A stretch of DNA of 35,328 nt, taken from an uncultured Tropicimonas sp. Lineage in GTDB: Bacteria > Pseudomonadota > Alphaproteobacteria > Rhodobacterales > Rhodobacteraceae. The stretch is from NCBI GenBank assembly GCA_947495685.1, contig CANLZY010000043.1:1-35328 (forward strand), in the 5' to 3' direction. Shown here in pieces: positions 14,119-35,328 of this stretch (position 1 is the first letter of the stretch; each line of letters opens with the position of its first letter). The position numbers were made by a program, and so were the translations under genes. Below the pieces are notes generated by a model. It did not search any database. It had not been told where the DNA came from and worked only from the letters and a program-made list of their open reading frames with translations.

Positions 14119-14238
14119 CGGCCCAAGGCCTCTGACTTCGGGGGTTACACGGTAGCAGATCCATGGCTGACCGAAATGATGACGGTGGTCGCGAAAGCCC
14201 AAGCTCTTGAAGAGATCGTCCCAAGTCTAAAGAAGTGA
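14119..14238 (+). other. In-frame open extension after the binding-protein stop
   Basis: Continuing past the TGA at 14116-14118 in the same frame gives about 39 sense codons, ending PWLTEMMTVVAKAQALEEIV, then PSLKK and TGA at 14236-14238. The composition is protein-like and helical. It may be a lost C-terminal tail, a readthrough product or chance. Confidence 0.3.
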
Positions 14239-14254
14239 AGTGACCCACAACCAA

Positions 14255-14299
14255 GGCACGCTCTCTCGCCCCCAGTTCCACCATGGCGCAGAGCGTGCC
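14255..14299. repeat. Stem-loop between binding protein and chemoreceptor
   Basis: Arms GGCACGCTCT (14255-14264) and AGAGCGTGCC (14290-14299) are exact reverse complements with a 25-base loop. It ends 26 bases before the chemoreceptor ATG and has no T-run. It could moderate read-through or translation of the chemoreceptor gene. Confidence 0.6.
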
Positions 14300-14325
14300 G
14301 TGTTCCCATGTTCTGAGAGAAAACA

Positions 14326-16263
14326 ATGAAAATGTTCCGCCTGGACCTGTCGGTGAAGTCCCGCATTCTGGTCTTGATTCTCAGCGCCTTGATGCTGTTC
14401 ATCGTGGGCTATTCGCTGTTTTGGTCCGCCCGCTACACGACGCAACTGGAATCGGCCTTCCAGAACGAGATGCGGCTTGCACCTCAATTCCTGACCACGC
14501 CAGTGGCCACTGCGGTCTGGGACTTCCGGCCGGACGCGGCGGAGGCAGCCCTGGCCGAACTTGCGATGCTTGATTCCGCCAGTTTTGCGCGTGTTCTCGA
14601 AGGTGGTGAAGCGACCGCTCAATATGTGCGCGAGGGCGATTGGCAGCCACACTGGGAAGAGCTGCTAAAGGAATTGAACGCCGCTTCAACCGAGGAGCAG
14701 AAGATTGCTGCCGGCGAGGATGTCGTGCTGATCAGGCCTTTGATCGCGGAGGATGGCTCGCTGCTGGGACAACTGGTTTTCGGTTTCTCGCGGGCCAGCA
14801 TCGACGCCAAAATCCGGGATGCGAATATCTGGTCCACAACGCTAGGGGTCGTTGCATTCGCCGTCTTTGTCGTGATTGCTCTGTTCATCGCGGCGTCGGT
14901 CACCCGCCCACTCAACAGGCTGATCGACTTGATTGATCGCATGCGCGGCGGCGACACGGACTTTGTGTCGAAAGATTCCACACGTCGGGACGAGTTCGGC
15001 AATCTGGGCCGCGCAGTGGAAGAATTCAGGGACAATCTGATCGAAACGCAGAAGCTTCAACGCGAAGAAACTGAATCACGTCAGGAACAGGAAGCGCTAA
15101 AAGCCAAACTGGCGGATGAGGAGACAGCTCGCGCCGAAGAAGTCGAGCGTTCGCGAATCGATCGCGAGCAGGCGCGGGACCGGGAGGCTGCAGAAAAGAC
15201 TCGTGCAGATGAGCAGCAGCAAGCCGAGCGTGAGGCGCGTGCGGCGGAGCAATCGCAGGTCGTCGAAGCGTTGTCGAATGCTCTCGGAGCGATGTCCAAG
15301 GGGGATCTCAGCGCTCGCCTTGATGAGGCGTTTCCCTCGGATTACGAAGCGCTTCGGCACAATTTCAACGAAGCCGTCGATCGAATCTCTCGCTTGGTTG
15401 GGGCAATCGTTCAAGGTGCTCAGGGCATCCGAAACGAAATTGGCACGCTCAACAACGCGGCCACGGAAATGGGCCAACGAACCGAATCCCAAGCGGCATC
15501 CCTGGAAGAAACCGCTGCGGCGATCACAGAGCTTTCGGCCTCGGTGGACAACTCCAACAAGGGCGCTCAAGAGTCGACCGATACCGTGATCAGAACCCGG
15601 AAGAAGACGGAAACCGGGCGCGGGATCGTGCAAAAGACCATTGGGGCGATGTCGGAGATTTCCCAGAGTTCCGGAAAGATCTCGAAGATCACCAATGTCA
15701 TCGACGACATTGCCTTCCAGACCAACCTGTTGGCGTTGAATGCCGGTGTTGAAGCGGCACGGGCCGGTGAGGCTGGACGCGGTTTCTCTGTCGTGGCTTC
15801 TGAAGTCCGAGCACTGGCGCAACGCTCGTCTGAAGCTGCAAAGGAAATCGCCGAACTGATCTCGACGTCCGGCGAGCAGGTTGAAGCCGGCGTGGGCTTG
15901 GTCGAACATTCGGGTGAGGCCCTGACTGAAATCGACACCATGGTGGCGACGCTCAACACGCTGGTCGAGGCGAGTGCCGAGGCCTCGACGCAACAATCAG
16001 CAACGCTTGCGGAAATCACGACGGCGGTGAATCGCCTTGATCAAGTGACTCAGCAAAACGCGGCCATGTTTGAAGAAACCACTGTTGCGGTTGGAACGCT
16101 ACAAGCCCAGGCGGAAAGCCTTGAAAAGAACGCCGCGGCGTTCCGCCTCGGTGTTGGCGCACAGGCCATACCCCTCGCGTCCCGGAATGCGATAACGGCT
16201 TATCCCGCCGCGACATCTTCAATCCCTCCTGTTTCACGTGCCGTGGGTCATGGCAGCGGTTGA
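14326..16263 (+). CDS. Methyl-accepting chemotaxis protein
   Basis: A 645-residue transmembrane chemoreceptor. TM1 spans about residues 14-33, a periplasmic sensor about 34-168, and TM2 about 171-192. A HAMP domain starts at [17 protein letters not shown], with a second HAMP-like segment near residues 315-365 ([21 protein letters not shown]). A charged coiled coil lies between them (about 240-310). The signalling hairpin tip is at about 458-490 ([20 protein letters not shown] then GEAGRGF), the highly conserved CheA/CheW contact. No C-terminal CheR-tethering pentapeptide is visible. Sequence style matches rhodobacterial receptors. The preceding binding protein may supply its ligand. No other che genes are in the window. 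Confidence 0.93.
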
Positions 16264-17811: not shown

Positions 17812-17835
17812 CGAAAGCGCATGGCTTTCGCTTTT
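17812..17835. terminator. Hairpin at the end of the TRAP-larA operon
   Basis: CGAAAGC (17812-17818) and GCTTTCG (17824-17830) pair around a 5-base loop and are followed on the plus strand by CTTTT. The hairpin begins three bases past the larA-homologue stop on the minus strand. It could end transcription entering from the IS relic side, and perhaps the minus-strand operon too. Confidence 0.4.
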
Positions 17836-19120
17836 ACTCCGACGAGAGGCGTCCAGCAGCATCGAAAACCATCCCTGAAGCAAGACCGGCGATGGAAAGA
17901 GTTTCACTTGCTTGGACATGGTCCAGAAGCGCAGGCGAAACCCAGATCCGATGGATCTCCAGGGTATTCTTGATCCTGACAATTCTTGCCGTTTGAGGTG
18001 TCACCAAGTTGCAGGTCTTCAAGGCCACGACGATGGCGTCGTGATCGGTCTCAAGCACCATGGGCAGTTTCGCCGGTGCGAGGATCGTTGCCGTGATCGC
18101 GTTCGTGTACATCGCGCCGAGGTCAATCTTTTCGACGCAGGCGCGCGTCGAGATATCGGCGCTGCCGATTCCGACACCATTGCCATGCGACTGTGGCGTG
18201 ACATCCAACGCGACGATCTTCTGGATGGTGGGGGCATCGAATCCCGGCAGGCCGGAGCCGGGGCGTCCGGTCACGTTCGGGTCCAATCCCTCGCCGCTGA
18301 TGTTCTTGCCGATCTCGTCCACGATCAGCACGTCGATTTCCGGAAATTGCAGCCGCCCGATAGAGGCCTTGGCGGTTTCGAGGAGCGCCTTTTCACGCTC
18401 CATGATCCGGTCGGCCGGGATGATCTCGAGATCCATCAGATCGTCGAAGGCGTTTTCGAGGATCGCCAGACCGAACAGCACCGGCAGGTGTTTCAGCAGG
18501 GATTCCGCTGCTTGTGGAAGGACGTCCCTGAACCGGGCAAACCCATGACTGTGCAAGGCGACCGCGCCCTTGTGCTTTGCCAACCCGATGCTCAGCATCT
18601 TCACCAGCCCGCTTTCATACCGGGCCTTGAAGTCGGCGTGGGGTTTCACCTTGTTCATCACGACGATGGCGTCTGCCTCGAAGGCGTGGCGATCGGTGTA
18701 GAGCGGCGTACCATCGGGAAGGCAGGCAACCTCCACAACCTCCATGGAGGACCGGATCTCGGCCCCCGTCGAGACTTCAGTGATGCCATATCCGGCAAGC
18801 ACCTGTCGCTGCCCTTCGGCGGTTGCACCACCATGGCTGCCCATTGCCGGCACGATGAAGGGATGCGCCCCTTTGGATCTTAGTCCCGCAACGAGCGCGG
18901 CAACGATCTCCACCAGGCCCGCGATGCCCCGGCTTCCCACCGTGATCGCAATGCTCTTGCCGTAAAGATCCGCGTTCGCGACCTTTGCGAGCTCGGACCG
19001 GACCCGGCCCTTGATGTCAGTCAGGCGTGGACGGTCAAAATGTTGATCGACCGGGATGAGGGGTGGGAAGGGATAGTGCATCCCCCCCTCGATGTTCACT
19101 TTGATCGGTCCGAGATCCAT
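17834..19120 (-). CDS. larA: LarA-family nickel-pincer 2-hydroxyacid racemase/epimerase homologue
   Basis: A 428-residue protein of the LarA (DUF2088) family. The residues that in lactate racemase do catalysis and hold the nickel-pincer cofactor can be placed in order: Arg64 (GSRGI), His96 (MGSHGGAT), His161 (NKVKPHADF), Lys174 (SGLVKMLS, expected to anchor the cofactor) and His183 (LAKHKGA, expected Ni ligand). Family members racemise lactate, malate or other 2-hydroxy acids, or epimerise aldonates. The ATG at 19120 begins two bases after the dctM stop codon, so it is translated with the TRAP operon; an upstream ATG at 19165 would overlap dctM. Divergent larCEB genes supply the cofactor. The substrate should be the TRAP cargo; lactate itself is only one option. 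Confidence 0.85.
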   Translation of the reverse strand: MDLGPIKVNIEGGMHYPFPPLIPVDQHFDRPRLTDIKGRVRSELAKVANADLYGKSIAITVGSRGIAGLVEIVAALVAGLRSKGAHPFIVPAMGSHGGATAEGQRQVLAGYGITEVSTGAEIRSSMEVVEVACLPDGTPLYTDRHAFEADAIVVMNKVKPHADFKARYESGLVKMLSIGLAKHKGAVALHSHGFARFRDVLPQAAESLLKHLPVLFGLAILENAFDDLMDLEIIPADRIMEREKALLETAKASIGRLQFPEIDVLIVDEIGKNISGEGLDPNVTGRPGSGLPGFDAPTIQKIVALDVTPQSHGNGVGIGSADISTRACVEKIDLGAMYTNAITATILAPAKLPMVLETDHDAIVVALKTCNLVTPQTARIVRIKNTLEIHRIWVSPALLDHVQASETLSIAGLASGMVFDAAGRLSSE

Positions 19121-19124
19121 GGCG

Positions 19125-20408
19125 TCAATACAGCGACGGAAGCGCCAGCGAAATCGCCGGGACATAAGTGATGAGCATCAGCAGCGCGACCATACCCACG
19201 AAGAAGGGAAGGATTGCCTTGCTGAGTTTCTCGATGGTAACGCCCGAAATACTGCTCGCCACGAAGAGGTTTACGCCAAGCGGCGGCGTACAGAAACCGA
19301 TCGCGAGATTGACCGTCATGATGACGCCGAAGGCAATCGGATCGACGCCAAGCGCGACGGTCACCGGCAAAAGGATCGGGGTCATGATGATGATGGACGA
19401 GATGGTTTCCATGAACATGCCGATGACCAGCAGCATGAGGTTGATCAGCAAGAGGATGATGATCGGGTTGTCGGAAAGAGATGTGAACCACATGGCGAGA
19501 TCCGAAGGAATTCGGGCAAGAGTGATAACGCGACCGAACGCGGTTGCCATGATGACCAGGATCAGGATCGTACCGCTGGTCGTTGCGCTGCTGGCCAGAA
19601 GGTCGGGCAGATCCTTGAAGCGGATATTTCGGTAGACAAACAAGCCGACGAAGGCGGCATACAGGACGGCGACCGCCCCAGCCTCGGTGGGCGTGAAGAT
19701 GCCGCTGTAGATGCCCCCCAAGATGATCACCGGGACAAGGAGCGCCCAGACGGATTCGCGAAAGCTCACCGCCACGTGTTTCGGAGAGAAATCTTTTGTC
19801 GACTCTGCGATGGTCTCGTTGCCTCGCAACAGGAAACGGGCGACGAGCATGAACATGATGGCGAACAGGACGCCAGGAATGACCCCGGCCAGGAACAGCT
19901 TGCCGATGGAGACCTCGGCCGTCACCCCGTAGATGATGAAGGGGATGCTGGGCGGGATCATCACGCCGATCATGCCCGAAGCGGCCGTGAGAGAGGCGCT
20001 GAATCGGCGCTCGTAGCCGACCTTTTCCATCTCGGGGATGAGGTTGGAGCCGATCGCGGCAACCGTGGCTGGAGACGAGCCGGAAATCGCTGCGAAGAAC
20101 ACTGACGCAAGGACGTTCACATAGGCAAGGCCGGCGCGGATGTGGCCGATCAGGGAGTTGGCAAAGCCGACCAACCTGCGCGACATGCCACCCTTCTGCA
20201 TCACGTCTCCGGCGAGGATGAACAGCGGAACGGCGATCAGGGGGAAGGAATCCGCCCCGGTTACGACCGAGCGCGCAAGAAGCGCCATGGGCGGCGCGCC
20301 ATCAACGAACAGCATCACCGACATGGTCGCGATCCCGAGGCAGATGCCGATGGGGACGCTGAACAGAAGGGACACGAAGAGGACGGAGAAAAGGACGAGG
20401 GCAATCAT
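19125..20408 (-). CDS. dctM: TRAP transporter large permease DctM
   Basis: A 427-residue, about 12-helix membrane protein of the TRAP DctM family. It has the family's FPLIAVPLFILAGDVMQKGG and SGSSPATVAAIGSNLIPEM segments, MIPPSIPFIIYG, and the mirrored second half with GMFMETISSIIIMTP and GFCTPPLGVNLF. It forms the sodium-driven import channel with DctQ. The ATG at 20408 was chosen: it begins one base after the dctQ stop, with GGAGG about 11 bases upstream; the open frame extends further upstream into dctQ but shows no family features there. It is followed at once by the larA homologue. Confidence 0.95.
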   Translation of the reverse strand: MIALVLFSVLFVSLLFSVPIGICLGIATMSVMLFVDGAPPMALLARSVVTGADSFPLIAVPLFILAGDVMQKGGMSRRLVGFANSLIGHIRAGLAYVNVLASVFFAAISGSSPATVAAIGSNLIPEMEKVGYERRFSASLTAASGMIGVMIPPSIPFIIYGVTAEVSIGKLFLAGVIPGVLFAIMFMLVARFLLRGNETIAESTKDFSPKHVAVSFRESVWALLVPVIILGGIYSGIFTPTEAGAVAVLYAAFVGLFVYRNIRFKDLPDLLASSATTSGTILILVIMATAFGRVITLARIPSDLAMWFTSLSDNPIIILLLINLMLLVIGMFMETISSIIIMTPILLPVTVALGVDPIAFGVIMTVNLAIGFCTPPLGVNLFVASSISGVTIEKLSKAILPFFVGMVALLMLITYVPAISLALPSLY

Positions 20409-20409
20409 C

Positions 20410-20904
20410 TCAGTCGAGGCCTCCGCTTTCAGGAAGTGGATCACGGATCAGGGGGATCAGGTGCTGGATCACGCGAATGGAAGACAGGAGCGCACCAATC
20501 AGGGCCGAGGCGTAGAGGATCGGGATTGGCAACCCGAGCACCACCGATTTCTGGCTGGCGACAAACGGCTTCAGGATGAGATCCAGGCATTGGAAGAACA
20601 GAATGCCAAAGAACGTGAGGATCAACAGGCTGACCAGGATCGCCACCGCGCGTTGCCCCCTCGGGCTCAACATGTCGACCAGAACCGTGATCCGGATATG
20701 TTCGCCGCGCTTGAAGGCAAGGCTGACGGAGATCCAGACGAACCAGACGAACAACCAGAGCGTCAGTTCCTCGCCCCAGGAGAGCGACGCGTTCAGGACG
20801 TATCGCATGAAGACATTGCCGGCGATCAGGGCAACGATTGACGCAAGCAGCAAGGCGCTCAGCACACGCTCGGCATTGGCGTCGAGCCATTTCAGAAATG
20901 CCAC
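20410..20904 (-). CDS. dctQ: TRAP transporter small permease DctQ
   Basis: A 164-residue, four-helix protein of the DctQ family. It shows the N-terminal helix VLSALLLASIVALIAGNVFM, then RYVLNASLSWGEELTLWLFV, WISVSLAFKRGEHIRI, and a C-terminal helix pair. These are the conserved WxEE and FKxGxHI patterns of small TRAP subunits. The start is GTG at 20904, supported by a strong GGGAGGGG eight bases upstream. It lies between dctP and dctM and should form the membrane complex with DctM. Confidence 0.92.
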   Translation of the reverse strand: MAFLKWLDANAERVLSALLLASIVALIAGNVFMRYVLNASLSWGEELTLWLFVWFVWISVSLAFKRGEHIRITVLVDMLSPRGQRAVAILVSLLILTFFGILFFQCLDLILKPFVASQKSVVLGLPIPILYASALIGALLSSIRVIQHLIPLIRDPLPESGGLD

Positions 20905-20929
20905 GGGTCCCCTCCCATTTTGTGGCGGA

Positions 20930-20945
20930 CGCCCCTCTCGGGGCG
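20930..20945. repeat. Intercistronic stem-loop between dctP and dctQ
   Basis: CGCCCC-TCTC-GGGGCG is a tight GC hairpin in the 60-base dctP-dctQ gap. There is no proper T-run, so partial termination or protection of the dctP message is more likely than full termination. This would keep binding protein in excess over the permease. Confidence 0.6.
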
Positions 20946-20964
20946 CCCGGTTGGATTTGAGAGG

Positions 20965-21963
20965 TCAGCTTCCGCTTTCGGCGGCCACTGCGGCCACCCA
21001 TGCGTCATAGGCCTCGGCACCAACTGTATCGCGGTACTCGGCGCGGACACTTTCGGTCTTTTCGGCGAAAACGGCACGCTCTGCGGGGCTCAGGTCGACA
21101 ACATTGACGCCGGCATCCCGGATCTTTTGAAGCTGGCCGGCTTCTTCACCATTCACCAGTTCCTGCTGATAGGCCGAGGCCGCCGTCATCGACTCCTGCA
21201 CAAGCGCCTGGTGCTCTTCCGACAGGCTGGCGAAGAACTCCTGGCTGATCACCGGGATATAGACGGTGAAGACATGCCCGGTCAGGGATACATGCTTCTG
21301 AACCTCGTAGAAACGCTGCGAGTCGATCAGCGCAATCGGGTTTTCCTGGCCGTCGATGACGCCCTGCTGGAGCGCCGAATAGACCTCGCCGAAGTTCATC
21401 GGGGTCGGGTTTGCGCCCAGGGTGGTGAAAGTGTCCACATGTGCCGGAACTTTCATCGTGCGCAACTTCACCCCGTCCAGATCTTCGGGGGTCTTGATCG
21501 GACGGACATTGTTCGTGACGTGCCGTAGGCCGTTTTCCAGCCACCCAAGGCCGACCAGGCCCTGGTTCTGCAAGCGCTGAAGCATCGCGTCACCGGTCTC
21601 GCTTTCGAAAGTCGCAAGCGCGATGTCCTTGCTGGAATACATGTAGGGCAGCTCGATCACGGCAAAGGCAGGATCCCAGCCAGCGAAGAAGGACGAGGGC
21701 GGCACGGCCATTTCCAGCACGCCGGTCTGAACGCCTTCGATCATTTCGCGATCCGGCCCCATCTGCGAGGAGGGAAAGATCTGAACATCGATCTCGCCGC
21801 CGGAGCCGGCTTCGACGAGCTCCTCGAATTTCAGCAGCGCGCGATGCATGTGATATTGCTCATTCGCGCCATGGCCCACCTTGATAACGGTTTCGGCATA
21901 AGCGGCAGCGGACAGGCTGAGCGAGACGATTGCGCCAAGCGCAAGTGTGGATTTTCCGAACAA
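20965..21963 (-). CDS. dctP: TRAP transporter substrate-binding protein DctP
   Basis: A 332-residue DctP-family protein. The signal peptide FGKSTLALGAIVSLSLSAAA ends at AYA-ETV. The mature protein has the carboxylate-binding Arg168 in LDGVKLRTM, Asn190 in PTPMNFGEVYSALQQG and DGQENPI, all standard for TRAP receptors of organic acids. The start is a TTG at 21963, chosen because GGGAGGATC lies directly upstream and the signal peptide begins there. It is the first gene of a minus-strand operon dctP-dctQ-dctM-larA, divergent from the GntR regulator. Arg168 implies a carboxylate ligand, which fits a 2-hydroxy acid for the LarA homologue. Confidence 0.93.
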   Translation of the reverse strand: MFGKSTLALGAIVSLSLSAAAYAETVIKVGHGANEQYHMHRALLKFEELVEAGSGGEIDVQIFPSSQMGPDREMIEGVQTGVLEMAVPPSSFFAGWDPAFAVIELPYMYSSKDIALATFESETGDAMLQRLQNQGLVGLGWLENGLRHVTNNVRPIKTPEDLDGVKLRTMKVPAHVDTFTTLGANPTPMNFGEVYSALQQGVIDGQENPIALIDSQRFYEVQKHVSLTGHVFTVYIPVISQEFFASLSEEHQALVQESMTAASAYQQELVNGEEAGQLQKIRDAGVNVVDLSPAERAVFAEKTESVRAEYRDTVGAEAYDAWVAAVAAESGS

Positions 21964-22006
21964 TTGATCCTCCCTGGGTTCGAGCCGAAGCGGTCAGGCT
22001 TGCCGG

Positions 22007-22031
22007 CTGGTGTGTGGTATATCAGATATAG
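22007..22031. promoter_or_regulatory. GntR (FCD) operator between dctP and gntR-larCEB
   Basis: Contains TGGTATATCA (22015-22024), one mismatch from the TGGTATACCA palindrome known for FCD-type GntR proteins, and an overlapping perfect palindrome TATATC-A-GATATA (22018-22030). The 10 bases before it (CTGGTGTGTG) also recur at the second GntR operator near 27431. It lies in the only divergent promoter gap of the locus. Confidence 0.65.
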
Positions 22032-22103
22032 TATAGAAATCAACGTCGATCTTTGCTAGACTGCCTGTGTCACTTCGAACCGGTCGAAAAAAGGAATGCG
22101 CCC

Positions 22104-22793
22104 ATGCAGATCAAGCGTCCCGTTTCCTTGGGGAAAATGGCCGAGGACCGGATCCGGACCGGAATCGTTCGTGGCGAGTTTCAACTTGGCGAGTCCCTGC
22201 AGGAAAACCGGCTCTCTGCGAGTTTCGGCATCAGCAAGACTCCGATTCGGGAGGCGCTCGCGGCGCTCGGGCGGCAAGGCCTGGTGGAGTTCTTTCCGAA
22301 CCGGGGCGCGTTTGTCTTCACCCTGGACCAGGAAGAGGCCCGCCAGTTGTGCCGGTATCGGTTGATGCTGGAAAACAGGGCGCTTGAGTTGTCCAACACG
22401 CTTGACCATGACGGGCTGGTGGACGCGCTCGAAACAGTTTGCGAGGAAATGTCGGCGGCCCTGAACGGCGACGCGTTCGACCGCTACCTTGACCTCGACA
22501 CCGAGTTTCACGACGCCTTCTTCGATTTCTGTGGCAACAAGTACCTTCGCGCCGGCTATCGCCAGATCAGCGATGTCGTTGCCACGATGCGCACCCATTT
22601 GTCCAAACGTCCTGACCGGACCGATATGTCCTATCGCGAACACCGGGCGGTGCTTGAGCACGTTCGAGAGGGCGATCTTTCGGCGGCCCGGTCCGTCCTT
22701 GAACGGCATGTGACGCGCGGCGAGCGCTCCTATATCGACCTTGTCGGCGAGCGACAGGGTGCCGACGGAACCACCGGATCGGGCCGCGCCTGA
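22104..22793 (+). CDS. GntR-family (FadR/FCD) regulator of the lar/TRAP locus
   Basis: A 229-residue regulator. The winged HTH is at residues about 5-70, with recognition segment SFGISKTPIREALAALGRQG. The all-helical FCD ligand domain follows, with metal/ligand residues Asp132 and His136 (LDLDTEFHD), His180 (YREHRAVLEH) and His202 (ERHVTRG). FCD proteins sense carboxylic acids, often through a bound metal. The ATG at 22104 has AAGGAA upstream; the frame is open further back to a TTG at 22053 but with no family similarity. Its stop overlaps larC (TGATG), so regulator and cofactor genes are one operon. It probably represses both directions until the imported acid is present. It is clearly paralogous to the GntR at 26664-27350. 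Confidence 0.9.
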   Translation: MQIKRPVSLGKMAEDRIRTGIVRGEFQLGESLQENRLSASFGISKTPIREALAALGRQGLVEFFPNRGAFVFTLDQEEARQLCRYRLMLENRALELSNTLDHDGLVDALETVCEEMSAALNGDAFDRYLDLDTEFHDAFFDFCGNKYLRAGYRQISDVVATMRTHLSKRPDRTDMSYREHRAVLEHVREGDLSAARSVLERHVTRGERSYIDLVGERQGADGTTGSGRA

Positions 22794-23977
22794 TGCATAT
22801 TCATCTTGACCTCCTGGGCGGCCTCGCAGGCGACATGTTCATTGCGGCGATGCTGGATTTGCGGCCCGATCTCACGGAGCGCGCGCTGTCTGTCGTGGAG
22901 GAGCTGGGCCTGAGCGACAGGGTGCGTGTCGCGTGCATTCCGCACAAGGCCAGTGGGTTCACCGGCAGACAGGTCTCGGTCACCTTCTGCGGGAGCAATG
23001 GCGCCGAACACCACCACAGGAATTTTCGAGATATTCGCACCATGATCGAGGCATCCCGGCTTGCGACCAACGAAAAGACCCGTTCGCTGGACATCTTTGG
23101 CCATCTGGCGCGCGCCGAGGCCAGGGTGCACGGGGTCCCTCCTGACGCGGTGCATTTCCACGAGGTTGGCGCGCTGGACTCTATCATCGATATCGTCACA
23201 GCGGCCCGCATCCTCGAGCAAATCGGGCCTTGCCGCTGGTCGGCAAGCCCGATCCCGACCGGATCGGGGCGTGTACGGTGCCAGCACGGGATCATTCCGG
23301 TTCCGGCCCCGGCGACGATATTGCTGCTCGAGGGCATGCAGCTTGTGGATGACGGCATTCCCGGCGAGCGTGTGACCCCCACCGGGGCCGCCTTGCTGAA
23401 ACATCTTCAACCGGGTGTCACCGGTCCCTCACAGCCCATGAAGCTTCAGGGCTCCGGAACCGGATTTGGGCACGCCACGCTCCCGGGAATTCCGAACATG
23501 GTCCGTGCGATTCAATACACTGACACCCACGGGGCGCGCGCAGACCGGGTGGCGACCATCGCCTTTGAAGTCGACGACCAGACGCCGGAGGACCTGGCGA
23601 CGGGGCTCGAGATATTGCGGGACCGCGCGGATGTGCTGGATGTCTTCGTGGCGCCCGTGCTGGGCAAGAAGAACCGGCAGGCGCAGCACGTCACCATCCT
23701 GGCGCGCTCCGACGCGGAGGATGCCGTGATCGAGGCCGCGTTCGAACAGACGACGACGCTCGGCCTGCGTGTCCATCATACGCTCCGGCGAACCCTGGAG
23801 CGGCGAATGCATCAGGTCGGGGAAACACGGGTCAAGGTCGCGGACAGGCCGGGAGGCGCGACAGCCAAGGCCGAGGCCGATGACCTTGCGGATGTCACAT
23901 CAACAGCGCTGTCCCGCGTCAGGCGCGCCCATGCAGCGACGGACGCGGCCTTGCGCCTTGACGGAGGGACGCAATGA
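22793..23977 (+). CDS. larC: Nickel-pincer cofactor nickel-insertion protein LarC
   Basis: A 394-residue LarC homologue (nickel insertion step of NPN cofactor synthesis, a CTP-dependent cyclometallase). Characteristic parts are LGGLAGDMFIAAML at the N-terminus, a histidine cluster AEHHHRNF (residues 71-78), the motif AVHFHEVGALDSIIDIV (119-135), PVPAPATILLLEG, and the C-terminal LarC2-type domain from about residue 260. In Lactiplantibacillus plantarum this protein is split into LarC1 and LarC2 joined by frameshifting; here it is one continuous frame. It starts inside the gntR stop and overlaps larE by four bases, so it is tightly coupled in gntR-larC-larE-larB. Confidence 0.93.
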   Translation: MHIHLDLLGGLAGDMFIAAMLDLRPDLTERALSVVEELGLSDRVRVACIPHKASGFTGRQVSVTFCGSNGAEHHHRNFRDIRTMIEASRLATNEKTRSLDIFGHLARAEARVHGVPPDAVHFHEVGALDSIIDIVTAARILEQIGPCRWSASPIPTGSGRVRCQHGIIPVPAPATILLLEGMQLVDDGIPGERVTPTGAALLKHLQPGVTGPSQPMKLQGSGTGFGHATLPGIPNMVRAIQYTDTHGARADRVATIAFEVDDQTPEDLATGLEILRDRADVLDVFVAPVLGKKNRQAQHVTILARSDAEDAVIEAAFEQTTTLGLRVHHTLRRTLERRMHQVGETRVKVADRPGGATAKAEADDLADVTSTALSRVRRAHAATDAALRLDGGTQ

Positions 23978-24762
23978 GCATCTCGGCCCTGCAATCGGTT
24001 CTTGACGACATCGGCCCTGCAACGATCGCGGTCAGCGGCGGGGTCGACAGCATGACCCTTGCCGCCGTCGCCTGCGAGCGGCACGCGGCGAGTATTGTCT
24101 GTCACGCTGTATCGCCGGCAGTCCCGGAGCGGGCCACGCGGCGGGTCAAGGAATTCGCGCAAAGCCGGGGATGGAACCTCGCGATCCTTGATGCGGGCGA
24201 ATTTGCGGATTCCGACTACCGGTCCAATCCGGTCAATCGCTGTTTCTTCTGCAAGACCCGGCTCTATGGATCTATCGCGGGCCGGTCCGATCTGCCGGTT
24301 CTCTCGGGAACGAATCTCGATGATCTGCAGGATTTTCGCCCCGGGCTCGAGGCCGCACGTATGCACGCGGTGCGCCATCCCTTCGTGGACGCGGATATGC
24401 GCAAGAGTGACGTCCGCGCGGTTGCCCGCCAGTTAAGATTGGCGGAGATTTCCGATCTTCCCGCGTCCCCCTGCCTGTCCAGCCGGGTCACCACCGGTCT
24501 CCCGATCGAGGCTGACGACCTGAAGGTGATCGAACGAATCGAAGACGCGGCCCGGGCTGTTCTGGGAGAGGTGACGCTCCGATGCCGGCTCACGCCGAAC
24601 GGGCTCCAGCTTGCCGTCGATGAAGCCGTTCTGGCGTCGCTGAGCACCGCGACTGCCGAAGAACTGTCCGACCGGGTGTCACGCTTGCTTCGCCCGCAGG
24701 ATCAATATGTCGGATTGTGGCGATACCAAAAGGGCAGCGCCTTTGTGGGGGCGCCGGCATGA
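23974..24762 (+). CDS. larE: ATP-dependent sulfur transferase LarE
   Basis: A 262-residue PP-loop protein. The ATP-pyrophosphatase loop is SGGVDS (residues 21-26). LarE adenylates the pyridinium dicarboxylate made by LarB and inserts sulfur to give the bis-thiocarboxylate. Cys167 in LPASPCLSSRV is at the position of the sulfur-donating cysteine of L. plantarum LarE. Two more cysteines form NRCFFCK (Cys90, Cys93); three such cysteines are the hallmark of the iron-sulfur-cluster LarE subgroup, so this enzyme may be catalytic rather than sacrificial. Four-base ATGA overlaps join it to larC and larB. ExsB/NadE-like enzymes share the fold, but the neighbours settle the assignment. Confidence 0.92.
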   Translation: MSISALQSVLDDIGPATIAVSGGVDSMTLAAVACERHAASIVCHAVSPAVPERATRRVKEFAQSRGWNLAILDAGEFADSDYRSNPVNRCFFCKTRLYGSIAGRSDLPVLSGTNLDDLQDFRPGLEAARMHAVRHPFVDADMRKSDVRAVARQLRLAEISDLPASPCLSSRVTTGLPIEADDLKVIERIEDAARAVLGEVTLRCRLTPNGLQLAVDEAVLASLSTATAEELSDRVSRLLRPQDQYVGLWRYQKGSAFVGAPA

Positions 24763-25433
24763 GCGGGCATCCGGAGATCATCCTGGACGAAGACCGTCCG
24801 GCGCGCGTCGGTGTGGAGGAGGCGATCTTCTGCGCCCAGAAAACAGCCGCACAGGTCTCGAAGATCGTTGAAATGAGCGCTTCGCCCAATCGCCGGCGGC
24901 TGTTCACGCGTTTGTCGCGCGAAACCTTCAATGCACTGATCCCCGACATTCAGAGTCAATTGCGCTTCGATGCGATATCTCGGACGGCGGTGCTTGGCGA
25001 AGAACGGGCCCTGACCGGGCCGCCACGGGCCGCCATCGTCTCGGCCGGGTCATCAGACGCGCCGGTTGTGGCCGAAGCTGCCCAGACGCTTCGCTACCAC
25101 GGACAGGAGTGCACCATCCTGTCCGATGTTGGCGTGGCAGGGCTCTGGCGGCTTCTGGACCGTGTGGAGGAGATCGGGAAACACCCGGTCGTCATTGCGG
25201 TCGCCGGGATGGACGCAGCCTTGCCGACGGTTCTGGGCGGGCTGGTGCCGTCCTGCATCATCGGCGTTCCGACCTCGACCGGGTACGGCGCAGCGCGGAG
25301 CGGCGAGACAGCCCTGGCGGCCATGCTTTCGAGCTGTGCGCCGGGGTTGACCGTGACCAACATCGACAATGGCTACGGCGCGGCGATTGCCGCACTCAGG
25401 ATTTTGCGGGCACTGGACGCCGCCCAAGCGTGA
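24759..25433 (+). CDS. larB: Pyridinium-3,5-biscarboxylic acid mononucleotide synthase LarB
   Basis: A 224-residue LarB homologue, which carboxylates and hydrolyses nicotinic acid adenine dinucleotide in the first step of NPN synthesis. The C-terminal half is PurE/AIR-carboxylase-like: AAIVSAGSSDAPVVAEA, ILSDVGVAGLWRLL, VVIAVAGMDAALPTVLGGLV, then GVPTSTGYGAARSGETAL. Cys193 in LSSCAPGLTV lies where LarB carries its substrate-binding cysteine. The ATG at 24759 overlaps the larE stop (ATGA), which decides the start over the longer open frame. It is the last gene of the cofactor operon and is convergent with the MFS gene 77 bases on. Confidence 0.92.
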   Translation: MSGHPEIILDEDRPARVGVEEAIFCAQKTAAQVSKIVEMSASPNRRRLFTRLSRETFNALIPDIQSQLRFDAISRTAVLGEERALTGPPRAAIVSAGSSDAPVVAEAAQTLRYHGQECTILSDVGVAGLWRLLDRVEEIGKHPVVIAVAGMDAALPTVLGGLVPSCIIGVPTSTGYGAARSGETALAAMLSSCAPGLTVTNIDNGYGAAIAALRILRALDAAQA

Positions 25434-25510: not shown

Positions 25511-26653
25511 TCAGTCATTCCACCGCTTGGAATAGGTAAAGTCCAGCGCGAGCACGATCAGAATGCAGCTTGCCGCCGCCAGCGCCGTGCCGGTGAACCC
25601 CCAGGCCGTGTAGACCTGCCGGAAGGTGGCCGTGCCCACGAACATCGCCGCATATGTGACGCCGCTATAGAGCCCAAGGATCGCAGCGCGATTGCGCGGT
25701 GAAATCGAGGTGAGCCTGCCCACAAGGATCGTCATCCCGAGATGCACGCAGATCCCCCAGCAGAACGCGACGATCAGAAGCGACAGATAGGCGTGCCCGG
25801 CAATGGAGAGCACCACATAGGTCGTGATCAGCGCCCCGAACACGATCGGCCCCGCCCGCTGCCGTCCATAGCGGTCGATATACGGGTCAAACAGGGTGGC
25901 AGCACCGTATCCCAGCCCGTAGCTGAGCGAGATCAGCCCGGCCAATGTCGTCGACCTGCCGAGATCCTCGTGCACATGCGAACCGACAAAAGCGTAGAGC
26001 CCGTAAAACGCGATCATGAAGGCAGAGACGGAGAAGAGGACCGGCGCGATATTGGGGACCTTCAGCGCATCGAATGGCGACGGGGCGGCAACGGGGTCGG
26101 TCTCCGCACTCGGCGCCGGGATCATGCCGGACAGCACATATGTGATCAGGAACCCAGCCGCCGAGAGGATCGTGAAGACGATGCGCCAATGCACCAGGTC
26201 GGCGAGAAAGGCCGAGACGCTTACCCCGACCACGAGGCTGACCGTCCAGCCGGTGAGAACCTTGCCGACCGTCTCGTTCTCGCGGCCCGGCGGCGCGACA
26301 TCGGCGGCGAAACCATAGATGCAGGGCAGGCAAACACCCGCGGCGATCCCGGCAAGCGCCTGGAACAGGACAAGGCTCGACAGAGTCGGGGCGAAAGATG
26401 TGGCGGCGAGTGCAAGTGACAGGGTCGTCATCGCGACAAGCAGCGCCCTGCGCGCGCCCACCTTGCCGACATTGGGTGCAAGGAGCACCGCACTTGCGGC
26501 GGTTGCGGCGCCGTAGAACGCGGACGCAACAAGCACGTCAGGGGCTGTCTTGCCCGCAAAGGATTGCGCGACCGAACCGGCGAGCGGGCTGAGCGCAAGC
26601 GAATTGGACCCCACCACGCCGATGGCGAGTGAGAGAACGAGGACTGGATTCAT
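25511..26653 (-). CDS. MFS transporter
   Basis: A 380-residue 12-helix major facilitator protein. The N-terminal half shows APNVGKVGARRALLVAMTTL (the loop 2-3 motif) and ADLVHWRIVFTILSAAG, typical of drug-type or sugar/aromatic exporters and importers. The start at 26653 was chosen because it opens a membrane-type N-terminus (NPVLVLSLAIGVVGSNSLAL) and lies just after the GntR stop (10 bases); the longer frame overlaps gntR and is not membrane-like. It is co-transcribed with the GntR regulator, so it probably moves a substrate or by-product of the divergent sugar-acid operon. Direction of transport is unknown. Confidence 0.88.
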   Translation of the reverse strand: MNPVLVLSLAIGVVGSNSLALSPLAGSVAQSFAGKTAPDVLVASAFYGAATAASAVLLAPNVGKVGARRALLVAMTTLSLALAATSFAPTLSSLVLFQALAGIAAGVCLPCIYGFAADVAPPGRENETVGKVLTGWTVSLVVGVSVSAFLADLVHWRIVFTILSAAGFLITYVLSGMIPAPSAETDPVAAPSPFDALKVPNIAPVLFSVSAFMIAFYGLYAFVGSHVHEDLGRSTTLAGLISLSYGLGYGAATLFDPYIDRYGRQRAGPIVFGALITTYVVLSIAGHAYLSLLIVAFCWGICVHLGMTILVGRLTSISPRNRAAILGLYSGVTYAAMFVGTATFRQVYTAWGFTGTALAAASCILIVLALDFTYSKRWND

Positions 26654-28383: not shown

Positions 28384-28412
28384 CGTCAGAAAATCGTCTC
28401 AGGGAGGAACCA

Positions 28413-29447: not shown

Positions 29448-29456
29448 CGGTTTCCC

Positions 29457-29489: not shown

Positions 29490-29529
29490 CCCTTTCAAAA
29501 CTGATCCTGAACCGACTGGGGCACGTCTC

Positions 29530-31041: not shown

Positions 31042-32012
31042 ACGCGCTTCTTCGCTCCCCCATCATCGCCCCGCTGGCCGCGCTCCTGATCGTGACCGCC
31101 ATCGCGGCACTCACCACGCCGCGCTTTCTCGACACCGGCAACCTGTCGAACCTCGCGCTTCAGGTCTCGATCGTGGCCATCGTCGCCATCGGCTCGACCT
31201 TCGTGATCCTGATCGCCGGGATCGACCTCTCGCCCGGCTCGGCCATCGCGCTGCTGACCATGATCTTCGCCATGTCGGTGAAATTCCAGGGCATACCCCT
31301 GCCAATCGCCATCCTGTTGACCATCGCGCTCGGCGCGGGGCTCGGGGCGTTCAACGGCTTCCTGACCGCCTATCTGAGGATCCCGGCTTTCATCACCACA
31401 CTCGCGGCCCTCTCCGCCTTCCGTGGCATGGCCTTCCTGTTCAACAACGGCTCGCCGGTCTTCTCCGTCCATGACGCGCTTGAAGGCATCTTCTACGGCA
31501 CCTTCCTCGGCCTGCCGCTGCCGCTCTACTACCTGATCATCCTCTATGCGGCGGCCTGGTACGTGCTGCGCTACACCGCCTTTGGCCGCGCCGTCTATGC
31601 GGTCGGCGGCAACCCGAACGCGGCCGAGCTCTCCGGGCTCAAGGTCCGGCGCATCCAGTTCTTCGCCTTCATGATCGCCGGGGCAATGGCCGGGATCGGC
31701 GCGGTGCTCATGGCCGCGCGGCTCAATTCCGGCTCGCCGAATTACGGCGTGGGCCTCGAGCTTTCCGCCATCGCCGCTGCCGTCATCGGCGGGGCCAGCC
31801 TGGCGGGCGGACGCGGCAACATCATCAACACGCTCATCGGCGCGCTGACCATCGTCATCGTCCAGAACGCGCTCAACCTGAACGCCGTCCCGACCTCGGT
31901 CCAGACCATCGTTCTTGGTGCCATCATCGTCACCGCCGTCGGCCTCGACATGTGGCGCAACGAAATCGGGAACGTCCTGCATGGGCTGGCCGCGACCCGA
32001 CGCAAATCCTGA
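31038..32012 (+). CDS. Sugar ABC transporter permease (RbsC-type)
   Basis: A 324-residue membrane protein of the CUT2 permease family. It shows VAIGSTFVILIAGIDLSPGS, the conserved GAFNGFLTAYLRIPAFITTL loop, and the EAA-like GRAVYAVGGNPNAAELSGL followed by KVRRIQFF, then LAGGRGNIINTLIGALTIVI. About eight to ten helices are predicted. The ATG at 31038 overlaps the ATPase stop (ATGA) and is chosen over the upstream extension for that reason. It completes the ABC importer with the binding protein and ATPase. Confidence 0.93.
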   Translation: MNALLRSPIIAPLAALLIVTAIAALTTPRFLDTGNLSNLALQVSIVAIVAIGSTFVILIAGIDLSPGSAIALLTMIFAMSVKFQGIPLPIAILLTIALGAGLGAFNGFLTAYLRIPAFITTLAALSAFRGMAFLFNNGSPVFSVHDALEGIFYGTFLGLPLPLYYLIILYAAAWYVLRYTAFGRAVYAVGGNPNAAELSGLKVRRIQFFAFMIAGAMAGIGAVLMAARLNSGSPNYGVGLELSAIAAAVIGGASLAGGRGNIINTLIGALTIVIVQNALNLNAVPTSVQTIVLGAIIVTAVGLDMWRNEIGNVLHGLAATRRKS

Positions 32013-32031
32013 ACCCCAAGGAGCACACACA

Positions 32032-32529
32032 ATGACCGCCAACACCTTCTCCCATATCGGGATCACAGTGCCGGACCTCGAAAAGGCCGTCGAATTCTAC
32101 ACCAAGGCCTTCGGCTTCTACCTGATCATGGAACCGACCGAGATCCAGCAGGATGACAGCGCCATCGGCGAGATGTGCGACGACGTCTTCGGACCCGGTT
32201 GGGGCTCGTTCCGCATCGCCCACCTGTCGACTGGCGACGGCATCGGCATCGAGCTGTTCGAATTCCCCAAGACCGAACAGGAAGACCGCCCCTTCGAATA
32301 CTGGCGCCCGGGCCTGTTCCACTTCTGCATCCAGGACGAGAACCTGGAGGAACGCGTGAAGGTCATCGAGTCCCTCGGCGGCAAGCAACGAATGCAGAAG
32401 GTCCGCAAATACTACCCCGGCGAGAAGCCCTACCGGATGGTCTATTGCGAAGACCCCTTCGGAAACATCTTCGAGCTCTACTCCCATTCCTACGAACTCA
32501 CCTATTCCGCCGGCGCCTATCAGGACTGA
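32032..32529 (+). CDS. VOC-family (glyoxalase-like) protein
   Basis: A 165-residue vicinal-oxygen-chelate protein with two beta-alpha-beta-beta-beta halves. The expected metal-ligand positions are visible: His8 (FSHIGITV), Glu in GIGIELFEF, His in GLFHFCIQ and Glu in GNIFELYSH. Members act as glyoxalases, epimerases, dioxygenases or isomerases. AAGGAG precedes the ATG. Its place between an ABC importer and a 2-hydroxyacid dehydrogenase suggests it isomerises or epimerises a pathway intermediate, but this cannot be settled from sequence. Confidence 0.85.
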   Translation: MTANTFSHIGITVPDLEKAVEFYTKAFGFYLIMEPTEIQQDDSAIGEMCDDVFGPGWGSFRIAHLSTGDGIGIELFEFPKTEQEDRPFEYWRPGLFHFCIQDENLEERVKVIESLGGKQRMQKVRKYYPGEKPYRMVYCEDPFGNIFELYSHSYELTYSAGAYQD

Positions 32530-33574: not shown

Positions 33575-34246
33575 ATGCTGAAAGTATACAACGACTTCGA
33601 ACGCAACCCGGAGCTTCTGGCCAAGTTCGACGAAGTCATCAAATGCCTCTCCGCCACCGCCGTCTTCGCCGACAGCCAATACCGAACCGGCGTCATGGAC
33701 AGCGGCATCAAGCCCGCCTTCCGCGCCAAGGTCTGTGGCCAGGCGCTGACCGTCCAGCTCTCCAAGGGCGACCTCGTGGACCCGCTCAAGGCGCTTGAGA
33801 TGGGCCAGGCCGGCGACATCATCGTCGTCGATGCCGGTGGCGACCTGAACACCTCCGTCTGCGGCGGCTTGATGGGCGGTCTGGCCCAGAATGTCGGAAT
33901 CCGGGCGATGATCGTGGACGGGGCCGGCCGTGACACGGACGAACTCGAAGACATCGGCTGGCCGATCTGGACCCGCGCCATCACCCCGCGTGGAACCCAC
34001 ACCATGTTCTCCGAACGCAAGGAAGAGCTGTCTATCAACGTGCCGATCGCCTGTGGGGGCGTGTCGGTCAATCCCGGCGATTTCATCGTTGCCGACTTGA
34101 TGGGCGTCGCGGTGATCGCGCAGGACAAGGCCGAGGAGATCGTGGAACTGGCCCGCGAACAGGCCGAGCGCGAGCAGAAGACCCGCGAATGGGTCGCCCA
34201 GGGCAAAACGGTTCAGGATCTGCTCAAAGAATTCGGCCGGATCTGA
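33575..34246 (+). CDS. RraA-like aldolase (HMG/CHA-aldolase family)
   Basis: A 223-residue member of the RraA/HMG aldolase family (DUF/methyltransferase-like fold). Landmarks are QALTVQLSKGDLV, the GGLMGGLAQNVGIR loop, and Arg119-Asp120 in VDGAGRDTDE, which correspond to the substrate-binding and metal/acid residues in 4-hydroxy-4-methyl-2-oxoglutarate aldolases. Such enzymes cleave 4-hydroxy-2-oxo acids to pyruvate, or decarboxylate oxaloacetate; true RraA proteins regulate RNase E but lack the catalytic pair. The metabolic context here favours an aldolase. It is followed without a gap by the remains of dgoK. Confidence 0.88.
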   Translation: MLKVYNDFERNPELLAKFDEVIKCLSATAVFADSQYRTGVMDSGIKPAFRAKVCGQALTVQLSKGDLVDPLKALEMGQAGDIIVVDAGGDLNTSVCGGLMGGLAQNVGIRAMIVDGAGRDTDELEDIGWPIWTRAITPRGTHTMFSERKEELSINVPIACGGVSVNPGDFIVADLMGVAVIAQDKAEEIVELAREQAEREQKTREWVAQGKTVQDLLKEFGRI

Positions 34247-34253
34247 TCCGCGC

Positions 34254-34842
34254 CTGATCGGCATTGATTGGGGGACAACCTCCTTTCGCGCCTATCTGCT
34301 CGGCGCCGGCGGAGAGATTCTCCGCCGGCCCAAGGCAAGGCGCGGCATCCTGCATGTGGAGGGAGGCGATTTCGAGGATTTCTTCCGCGAGCAGGTCGGA
34401 CCCTGGCTGGCCGCGTGGAATCTTCCCGTCATCGCCTCTGGCATGATCCGAAACGCCTTATCTGGACCTCCCGGTCGGGCCGTCGGAGCTTGCGGCACAT
34501 CTCACGGTTCACCGTCTGTCCGATGGGCAAGAGATACGCTTCATCACCGGCGCGACAGCGCTTGATGCTACGGGCGCGCCGGACGTGATGCGCGGCGAAG
34601 AGACCGAGATTGTCGGGCTTCTGGACCTCGGGCTCGAGGACGAGCTGATCGTGATGCCGGGCACGCATTCGAAATGGGTGCGCGTCGAAGGCGGGCGCAT
34701 CGCCTCCTTCGAAACCGTCATGACAGGTGACGTGTTCTCGGCCCTGCGCGAGGCGACCATTCTCGGCCAGCTGATGCAGGGCACCGACCCCGCGCCGCAG
34801 GCCTTCGAACGGGGCGGCCGCGCTGGGCAGCTTCCGCAATGA
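34254..34842 (+). pseudogene. dgoK: 2-dehydro-3-deoxygalactonokinase (dgoK), deleted, frameshifted and truncated by an IS
   Basis: The first frame reads LIGIDWGTTSFRAYLL (sugar-kinase phosphate loop) and continues to VIASGMIRNA at about 34456. A second frame then gives YLDLPVGPSELAAHLTV, TGATAL, DVMRGEETEIVGLLDLGLED, VMPGTHSKWVRVEGG and FETVMTGDVFSALREATILG, all DgoK hallmarks. A short segment (normally the GSRxGW region) is lost at the frame change. No ATG/GTG/TTG start is in frame near the 5' end. The C-terminal roughly one-third is missing because an IS3-type element begins at about 34838. An intact enzyme would phosphorylate 2-dehydro-3-deoxygalactonate. Confidence 0.85.
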
Positions 34843-34913: not shown

Positions 34914-35188
34914 ATGGCATCACGACCGAGCCCTGAGTTCCGCGCAGAAGCGGTTCGGGTCGCATTGACGAGCGGGCTTTTTCGCAAGCAGGTTGCTGCG
35001 GACTTCGGTGTTGGCTTTTCAACCCTGAGCCGATGGATCCAGCAGGAATGCAAGAACCCCGAGAAGCCGACGGCGCAATCCGACCTTGAACGTGAGGTTG
35101 CAGAGCTGCGCAGAGAGAACCGACAACTCCGGGAGGAGAGGGATGTGGTAAAGAGGCCACGGTGTTCTTCGCGGTACGAAGCAAATGA
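34914..35188 (+). pseudogene. IS3-family OrfA (frameshifted)
   Basis: The frame starts ASRPSPEFRAEAVRVALTSG and continues KQVAADFGVGFSTLSRWIQQ, a transposase_8 helix-turn-helix, then a leucine-zipper-like segment (EREVAELRRENRQLREERD). AAGGAG precedes the ATG. After VVK near 35153 the frame changes: the expected ATVFFAVRSK end and its TGA (35186-35188) lie one base out of frame. A single lost base is most likely; a frameshift signal is the alternative. Confidence 0.7.
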
Positions 35189-35328
35189 GGTTTGCCTTCG
35201 ACCACTGCCCGGCAGTGCATGTTTTCATGCACGAGAGGGGAAGAGCATCGTGACGAAATCCCGCTGGAACGGCTCTGCGAGATCATGGATGTCAGCCCTC
35301 GTGGGTATCGAGCCTGGCGTCGCCGTCC
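35185..35328 (+). pseudogene. IS3-family OrfB fragment, cut by window end
   Basis: The ATG at 35185 overlaps the expected orfA stop and gives MRFAF, the usual IS3 OrfB start, but that frame stops at 35253. A second frame then reads EIPLERLCEIMDVSPRGYRA followed by WRRR, the expected continuation (CRxLxVSxxGYYAWxxRP). It is therefore probably frameshifted; the DDE catalytic core lies outside the window. Confidence 0.6.

What the first reader, a model, noticed from the sequence alone, without database searches (positions are those of the whole stretch)
17834..25433. Self-contained nickel-pincer (NPN) hydroxyacid locus: TRAP importer, LarA homologue, GntR sensor and full larC-larE-larB
Sequence shows dctP-dctQ-dctM-larA on one strand and gntR-larC-larE-larB on the other, with stop/start overlaps along the second operon and one shared promoter gap. 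The LarA homologue keeps the cofactor lysine and the three key histidines. Known: LarB, LarE and LarC are sufficient for NPN synthesis, and LarA homologues have diverse 2-hydroxyacid substrates. Inference: this is a dedicated uptake-and-epimerisation module for a carboxylate that is not necessarily lactate. An Arg-type TRAP receptor defines the cargo as a carboxylate.
Basis: partly seen in the sequence, partly recalled or inferred. Interest (0 to 1): 0.8.

Follow-up and report, generated by a model that had tools for sequence, protein, structure and literature searches.

The report
Nickel-cofactor sugar-acid epimerase locus
A bacterium of the marine Roseobacter family carries one gene cluster that appears to import a sugar acid, flip one of its carbon centres with a rare nickel cofactor made on site, and hand it on for breakdown, which gives an uncharacterised enzyme group a testable substrate class.

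Summary
The genes are there as described: dctP-dctQ-dctM-larA on one strand, gntR-larC-larE-larB on the other. The LarA homologue scores as NCBIfam 'nickel pincer cofactor-dependent isomerase, group 22' (519 bits, cut-off 400); I found no assigned substrate for this group. Two catalytic-type histidines, the nickel-ligand-type histidine and the cofactor lysine are invariant in 21 of 21 aligned relatives.

The module is half of a larger unit. Seven distinct genomes, one gammaproteobacterial, share dctPQM-larA. In all 6 of 7 that can be assessed, a 2-hydroxyacid dehydrogenase, an RraA-type aldolase and a 2-keto-3-deoxygalactonate kinase lie within 16 kb. An operator-like site (TCTGATAYAYCAGA) sits 65-73 bp before dctP in 7 of 7 and again at the catabolic promoter in 7 of 7. 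In the window's 5.64-Mb genome its 11-base core occurs three times: at these two promoters and once inside a coding frame.

Best reading: a TRAP-fed C2-epimerase for an aldonate. The exact substrate is unknown. Here the kinase gene is broken and a transposase fragment follows it.

The parts
17834..19120 (-). larA homologue, group 22 (428 aa)
   Evidence: NF052515 519 bits over cut-off 400; Lar_N 31 bits; AF2 model, all 18 Foldseek hits at E<=0.001 are LarA-family structures
19125..20408 (-). dctM, TRAP large permease (open frame from 20444)
   Evidence: PF06808 420 bits; start from dctQ stop and relatives' 427 aa
20410..20904 (-). dctQ, TRAP small permease
   Evidence: PF04290 107 bits
20965..21963 (-). 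dctP, TRAP solute receptor; Arg168 invariant in 7 of 7
   Evidence: PF03480 302 bits; PDB relatives incl. 7bbr; alignment
22010..22029 (-). predicted operator 1 in the divergent gap
   Evidence: conserved 65-73 bp before dctP in 7 of 7; leave-one-out 0 of 100 shuffles as high
22053..22793 (+). gntR1, GntR/FCD regulator (start may be an inner ATG)
   Evidence: PF00392, PF07729
22793..23977 (+). larC, nickel insertase, one frame holding LarC1 and LarC2
   Evidence: TIGR00299 196 bits, NF052512 95 bits; only LarC1 match in the genome
23974..24762 (+). larE, sulfur transferase with SGGVDS and C90-x-x-C93 plus C167
   Evidence: TIGR00268 217 bits; motifs
24759..25433 (+). larB (open frame from 24717)
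   Evidence: NF033503 247 bits; ATGA overlap with larE
25511..26653 (-). MFS transporter (open frame to 26851; inner start inferred)
   Evidence: PF07690 127 bits
26664..27350 (-). gntR2, second GntR/FCD regulator
   Evidence: PF00392, PF07729
27441..27460 (+). predicted operator 2, between gntR2 and the lactonase gene
   Evidence: second-best site of the window; leave-one-out 2 of 100 shuffles as high; one of three exact core matches in the genome
27490..28383 (+). SMP-30/gluconolactonase-like lactonase
   Evidence: PF08450 272 bits
28143..32012 (+). sugar ABC importer, ribose/arabinose type: receptor (frame 28143-29447), ATPase (29212-31041), permease (30768-32012); true starts lie inside these frames
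   Evidence: PF13407, PF00005, PF02653; NCBIfam
31915..32529 (+). glyoxalase-superfamily protein (true start inside)
   Evidence: TIGR03645 280 bits over cut-off; PF00903
32557..33549 (+). NAD-dependent 2-hydroxyacid dehydrogenase
   Evidence: PF02826, PF00389; linked orthologues
33575..34246 (+). RraA-type aldolase family protein with DGAGRD motif
   Evidence: PF03737 129 bits; sequence
34230..34827 (+). broken 2-keto-3-deoxygalactonate kinase (two frames, one TGA inside)
   Evidence: PF05035 in two pieces; tblastn pieces
34914..35328 (+). transposase fragment at the contig end
   Evidence: PF01527 36 bits, start

Best explanation
A dedicated sugar-acid (aldonate) utilisation locus. The TRAP importer brings in an aldonate. 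LarB, LarE and LarC make the nickel-pincer nucleotide on the spot. The group-22 LarA homologue, with two histidines flanking the cofactor, inverts carbon 2 of the acid by hydride abstraction and return, so that the epimer accepted by the stereospecific next enzymes is formed. The co-regulated second operon (lactonase, sugar ABC importer, 2-hydroxyacid dehydrogenase, RraA-type aldolase, and in relatives 2-keto-3-deoxygalactonate kinase and phospho-aldolase) supplies more of the same acid from a sugar or lactone and breaks it down. GntR/FCD regulators act at one operator in the divergent gap and one at the catabolic promoter. Shown: genes, families, invariant residues, fold match, linkage, repeated site. 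Inferred: substrate class, C2 inversion, direction of flow, which GntR binds which site.
For: Family and residues; fold. Synteny of gntR-dctPQM-larA in 7 distinct genomes (window, L004, L005, L006, L007, L009, L010). Dehydrogenase, RraA and kinase linked in 6 of 6 assessable (L004 is cut by its contig end); phospho-aldolase in 5 of 5 assessable. Shared site at both promoters in 7 of 7; in the own genome 2 of 3 exact core matches are these promoters, in the Tropicimonas relative 2 of 2, in Nioella 4 of 5. Other group-22 loci: 12 of 14 hold a recognised sugar-acid dehydratase gene, one more holds glucuronate isomerase. A plasmid of Pantoea At-9b has dehydrogenase-RraA-kinase-aldolase with an MFS carrier and a mandelate-racemase-family enzyme where these loci have TRAP and LarA. 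DctP relatives in the PDB include 7bbr, titled sugar acid binding protein.
Against: No substrate or activity was tested. No recognised dehydratase lies in the stretches held for the 7 TRAP loci, though several open frames there stayed unnamed and the genome has 14 mandelate-racemase-family matches elsewhere. The group-22 profile finds no LarA chain in the PDB at E<=1 and global superposition is modest (TM 0.43-0.51). The position of the LarA aspartate D72 is not conserved by my reading (V, A, I or L). The loop after the second histidine reads A-D, not the E-V/S of known gluconate epimerases. The sites were first picked by eye around a fixed core, so their conservation before dctP is partly circular; L004 and window second sites are reached by 4 and 2 of 100 shuffles. 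In L005, L006, L009 and L010 genomes most or many core matches lie elsewhere (2 of 6, 2 of 3, 1 of 20, 3 of 9 in the locus). The kinase of this window is broken.
Confidence: 0.62

Rival explanations
1. [quoted passage not shown]
For: The tested LarA homologues act mostly on such acids (PMC7583248, PMC11770544); TRAP systems import many small carboxylates (PMC5812351 passages).
Against: Linkage in 6 of 6 and shared sites in 7 of 7; group 22 elsewhere sits with sugar-acid dehydratases in 12 of 14 loci; the loop after the second histidine is A-D, not the bulky F-F of lactate racemase.
Confidence: 0.15
2. The enzyme acts on an aldarate, uronate-derived or branched acid (for example a galactarate/talarate-like or pentonate-like compound) rather than on a hexonate.
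For: UxaA-type and L-arabinonate-type dehydratases beside other group-22 genes; RraA-family aldolases include those for dicarboxylic 4-hydroxy-2-oxo acids (names).
Against: Kinase and phospho-aldolase of the 2-keto-3-deoxygalactonate route fit a six-carbon monoacid better.
Confidence: 0.17
3. Not an epimerase: a group-22 enzyme uses NPN hydride chemistry for another reaction.
For: No member of the group is characterised in what I read; the C-terminal domain does not align with LarA and D72 looks lost.
Against: Both acid/base histidines are invariant in 21 of 21 rows, unlike the one-histidine homologues of PMC12611868.
Confidence: 0.06

Closest known systems
NCBIfam NF052515 NPN_iso_grp_22
   Same: Window LarA 519 bits, cut-off 400
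   Different: The model names no substrate; nothing here is characterised
GntE, D-gluconate 2-epimerases (LarAH19, LarAH20; PMC7583248, PMC11770544)
   Same: Works like: NPN enzyme inverting C2 of a hexonate (inferred for the window)
   Different: Other LarA groups (18-20); their loop after the second histidine is E-V/S, here A-D; no TRAP genes mentioned in the passages I read
Lactate racemase LarA and larABCDE of Lactiplantibacillus plantarum
   Same: Cofactor genes beside the enzyme, His/His/His/Lys set
   Different: Substrate pocket, transporter type, very low sequence similarity; LarE here has the CxxC-C motif of the Thermotoga [4Fe-4S] type
De Ley-Doudoroff galactonate route (recalled name)
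   Same: 2-keto-3-deoxygalactonate kinase and phospho-aldolase in the linked operon of relatives
   Different: No linked dehydratase; extra 2-hydroxyacid dehydrogenase, RraA and LarA; kinase broken in the window. A separate kinase-aldolase-SDR-lactonase set lies on contig C14
TRAP sugar-acid receptor DctPAm of Advenella (7bbr)
   Same: DctP related at E 1.5e-50; title says sugar acid binding protein
   Different: Not the closest hit (4p47, 1.8e-61); ligand of the window's DctP unknown

Membership tests
LarA superfamily (NPN-dependent racemases/epimerases) | Lar_N domain or a LarA-group model over cut-off | tested here: met
   PF09861 31.1 bits (23.3), NF052515 518.8 (400). PF04015 DUF362 also matches, 29.4 (24)
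LarA superfamily (NPN-dependent racemases/epimerases) | Two acid/base histidines (H108, H174), nickel histidine (H200), cofactor lysine (K184) | tested here: met
   H96, H161, H190, K174 by profile alignment, invariant in 21 of 21
LarA superfamily (NPN-dependent racemases/epimerases) | D72, R75 and K298 equivalents | tested here: inconclusive
   R64 and K272 are invariant candidates; the D72 place reads V/A/I/L; the alignment is gapped there and fails in the C-terminal domain
LarA superfamily (NPN-dependent racemases/epimerases) | LarA fold | tested here: met
   All 18 Foldseek matches at E<=0.001 are LarA-family entries, best 9.9e-11; TM only 0.43-0.51
LarA superfamily (NPN-dependent racemases/epimerases) | NPN-dependent inversion of a 2-hydroxyacid | not testable with these tools
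   needs enzyme and cofactor
D-gluconate 2-epimerase (GntE) groups 18-20 | E-V/S loop after the second catalytic histidine | tested here: not met
   A-D in the window and its 6 close relatives; so it may work like GntE but is not filed as one
NPN biosynthesis LarB/LarC/LarE | All three proteins over their curated cut-offs | tested here: met
[4Fe-4S]-type LarE | SGGxDS plus CxxC-C cysteines | tested here: met
   SGGVDS, C90, C93, C167; definition from passages of PMC9283937; cluster not shown
DctP-type TRAP receptor | DctP domain and the conserved carboxylate-binding arginine | tested here: met
   PF03480; Arg168 invariant in 7 of 7, equated with SiaP Arg147 by the offset
De Ley-Doudoroff-type pathway | Linked dehydratase, kinase and phospho-aldolase | tested here: not met
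   kinase and aldolase linked in relatives, no recognised dehydratase in 7 TRAP loci

The most novel reading that the evidence does not exclude
A dehydratase-free route for an aldonate: the LarA homologue sets C2, the D-specific 2-hydroxyacid dehydrogenase oxidises it to a 2-keto-aldonate, and phosphorylation plus aldol cleavage (kinase and phospho-aldolase, or RraA alone) gives hydroxypyruvate and a triose, with the same or a related dehydrogenase able to reduce hydroxypyruvate. This would make the nickel-pincer enzyme the gate of a redox-balanced sugar-acid pathway that I do not know from the literature.
Probability: 0.15. Interest if true: 0.72.

Novelty: new variant of a known kind. Interest (0 to 1): 0.5.

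Why it matters
Nickel-pincer enzymes are known mostly from a few tested groups, and the substrates of many LarA groups are open. The conserved neighbourhood and the two-promoter operator narrow group 22 to sugar acids, and name a receptor, an enzyme and two promoters that can be tested directly. If right, it links a rare nickel cofactor to uptake of sugar acids in Roseobacter-family bacteria, most of which lack it (group-22 larA in 10 of 394 genomes of the family, own genome included).

Tried and rejected
Direct sequence search of the LarA homologue against the PDB: 0 matches; group-22 profile: 3 matches at E<=1, all methionine aminopeptidase, chance. An AF2 model of DctP was poor (pLDDT 48.0, 7 rows), so the Foldseek ranking is not used as evidence; only entry titles are. 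A single-origin claim for the TRAP-linked larA genes: the 7 rows fall on one side of a branch, but with support 42/0 and in 44% of bootstrap trees, and the outgroup branch is very long, so it is not claimed. Third core match of the genome (C31:19036): inside a 545-aa open frame, not a promoter of sugar-acid genes (frame not family-searched). RNA families and tandem repeats in the window: none. Hunt for the missing dehydratase: an altronate-dehydratase-like gene on C45 and 14 mandelate-racemase-family matches, none linked. Lactate as cargo: considered and set lower. Literature: terms for TRAP ligands, RraA with dehydrogenases, and 2-keto-3-deoxygalactonate gave nothing to the point; 'lactate racemase' with 'TRAP transporter' gave 1 paper, on rumen metagenomes, seen as a listing only. 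Supplementary tables of PMC7583248 (contexts of the 25 groups) were not readable, so group 22's context may be listed there. Papers seen: PMC11770544 outline, passages, section 3 part 1, section 6; PMC12611868 outline, section 4 parts 1-2, section 10; PMC7583248 passages and section 8; PMC9283937, PMC5812351 and PMC11796402 passages.
Full report
What is there. The junctions are tight: gntR/larC, larC/larE and larE/larB overlap by stop/start, and larA starts just after dctM. LarC is one frame with both parts. LarE has SGGVDS and cysteines 90, 93 and 167, the CxxC-C pattern that in Thermotoga maritima holds a [4Fe-4S] cluster (passages of PMC9283937). The genome has one Lar_N gene and one LarC1 match, so the cofactor genes most likely serve this enzyme.

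The enzyme. The protein scores 518.8 bits against NF052515, 'nickel pincer cofactor-dependent isomerase, group 22' (cut-off 400), and 29.6 bits against the malate racemase model (cut-off 500). It is far from solved LarA proteins: no PDB match by sequence or by group profile. An AF2 model from 15 sequences (mean pLDDT 83.9) finds only LarA-family structures at E<=0.001, 18 of 18, best 9.9e-11, next hit 7.2e-3, with TM 0.43-0.51. Profile alignment with three canonical LarA proteins from unnamed proteobacteria places H96, H161, K174 and H190 on H108, H174, K184 and H200 of LarA (E 6.7e-5, probability 63.7). These are invariant in 21 of 21 group-22 rows, as are R64 and K272. The D72 position is not conserved and the C-terminal domain could not be matched, so the full catalytic set is not proven. 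After the second histidine the window and six relatives read A-D; the other 14 rows read S-A, T-A, T-S or T-T. In known enzymes this loop is F-F (lactate) or E-V/S (gluconate) (PMC7583248, passages and section 8). Groups missing H174 are known (PMC12611868); this group is not one of them.

Where it occurs. Counting the own genome, group-22 larA is found in 2 of 60 relatives, 10 of 394 genomes of the family and 3 of 398 of the phylum: patchy. A plasmid search found 114 records with a match, among them Marinovum algicola plasmid pMaD2 (80% identity).

The pairing. gntR <- -> dctPQM-larA occurs in seven distinct genomes: the window, Tropicimonas (L004), Marinovum (L005; L021 is another record of the same species), a Rhodobacteraceae MAG (L006), Nioella (L007; L008 is a near copy), Granulosicoccus (L009, gammaproteobacterium) and strain Alg231_04 (L010). 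larC-larE-larB stands beside it in 5 of 7; L009's genome has LarC on another contig and none was found for L006. In 14 other group-22 loci, 4 have a tripartite tricarboxylate transporter (L022, L025, L028, L029) and 3 a distant TRAP system in the stretch held (L031, L033, L034). Of the 14, 12 hold a recognised sugar-acid dehydratase (all but L023 and L031); L023 holds glucuronate isomerase. 2-Hydroxyacid dehydrogenases recur in L026, L027 and L035 and Ldh-type oxidoreductases in L025, L028 and L029.

The second half. In 6 of 6 assessable TRAP loci a 2-hydroxyacid dehydrogenase, an RraA-type protein (82-94% to L021's outside its own species) and a 2-keto-3-deoxygalactonate kinase lie within 16 kb of larA; the phospho-aldolase is present in 5 of 5 assessable. 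L004 is cut by its contig end. Lactonase and sugar ABC receptor genes join the unit in the window, L004, L007/L051 and L010/L066. In Pantoea sp. At-9b the dehydrogenase-RraA-kinase-aldolase set stands with an MFS carrier and a mandelate-racemase-family enzyme, as if TRAP plus LarA were one of several front ends. RraA relatives in Bradyrhizobium and Caballeronia also sit beside such a dehydrogenase and sugar ABC genes; in Neorhizobium no dehydrogenase of that name is next to it. No recognised dehydratase is in the held stretches of the seven TRAP loci; unnamed frames remain.

The operator. Each of the seven divergent gaps holds a site with core CTGATA-YAYCA or, in L009, CTGATACATTA, starting 65-73 bp before dctP. 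Built from the others, the matrix finds it again in each: 0 of 100 dinucleotide shuffles reach it, except 1 of 100 for L007. A second site lies before the catabolic operon: in the window between gntR2 and the lactonase gene (27441; 2 of 100 shuffles), L004 (4 of 100), before the dehydrogenase gene in L005, L006 and L009 (0 of 100 each), and between lactonase and gntR2 in L051 (Nioella; 0 of 100 with the full matrix) and L066 (Alg231_04; exact core, twice). A looser pattern search with three mismatches in the window alone was not beyond chance (6 matches against 3.35 expected, 15 of 100 shuffles). Exact core CTGATAYAYCA in whole genomes, in-locus of all: own 2 of 3, Tropicimonas 2 of 2, Nioella 4 of 5, L006 2 of 3, L005 2 of 6, Alg231_04 3 of 9, Granulosicoccus 1 of 20; the reversed control pattern gives 0, 0, 2, 1, 4, 4 and 5. 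The link is therefore strong in three genomes and modest in the rest. Which GntR binds is unknown.

Cargo. DctP is close to many solved TRAP receptors (101 distinct sequences at E<=0.001); 7bbr is titled a sugar acid binding protein. TRAP receptors for six-carbon aldonic acids, erythronate and pantoate are reported (review PMC5812351, passages). Arg168 is invariant in 7 of 7.

State of this copy. The kinase gene after RraA is in two frames with a TGA, and a transposase fragment follows before the contig ends. A different kinase-aldolase-SDR-lactonase set on contig C14 (37% and 49% to L021's kinase and aldolase) could take its place. An assembly error cannot be excluded.

Verdict. The parts are of known families; their combination, and a predicted sugar-acid role for group 22, I did not find in print in the searches, with the supplementary tables of the 2020 survey unread.

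Noticed in passing
window 34230-34827 (+): Broken 2-keto-3-deoxygalactonate kinase gene, two frames, then a transposase fragment (from 34914) at the contig end.
   Followed up: partly
window 38-3010 (-): Three genes resembling ectoine-utilisation types below their cut-offs: EutA-like (133 of 318 bits), peptidase/DoeA-like, diaminopropionate ammonia-lyase-like (251 of 276 bits).
   Followed up: no
window 6939-8240 (-): Metallo-hydrolase over the cut-off of the NCBIfam model GntH of guanitoxin biosynthesis (401 bits, cut-off 333); one gene, no other genes of that pathway were looked for, probably a wider family.
   Followed up: no
window 13327-16263 (+): Family-3 solute-binding protein followed by a chemotaxis receptor (MCP with HAMP) next to the larA operon.
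   Followed up: no
window 9854-11545 (+): Sulfatase-family protein.
   Followed up: no
L007 11649: A further strong operator-like site between larA and a second sugar ABC cluster in Nioella (0 of 100 shuffles), hinting at a third regulon member there.
   Followed up: no
L044 6255: Pantoea At-9b: palindrome CTGGTATACCAG before its dehydrogenase-RraA-kinase-aldolase operon (15.8 bits, 3 of 100 shuffles).
   Followed up: no
L023 7545-14089: Paenibacillus cellulositrophicus: group-22-like larA between glucuronate isomerase and an SDR, with larE, larB and a split larC; suggests a mannonate/gluconate step there.
   Followed up: no
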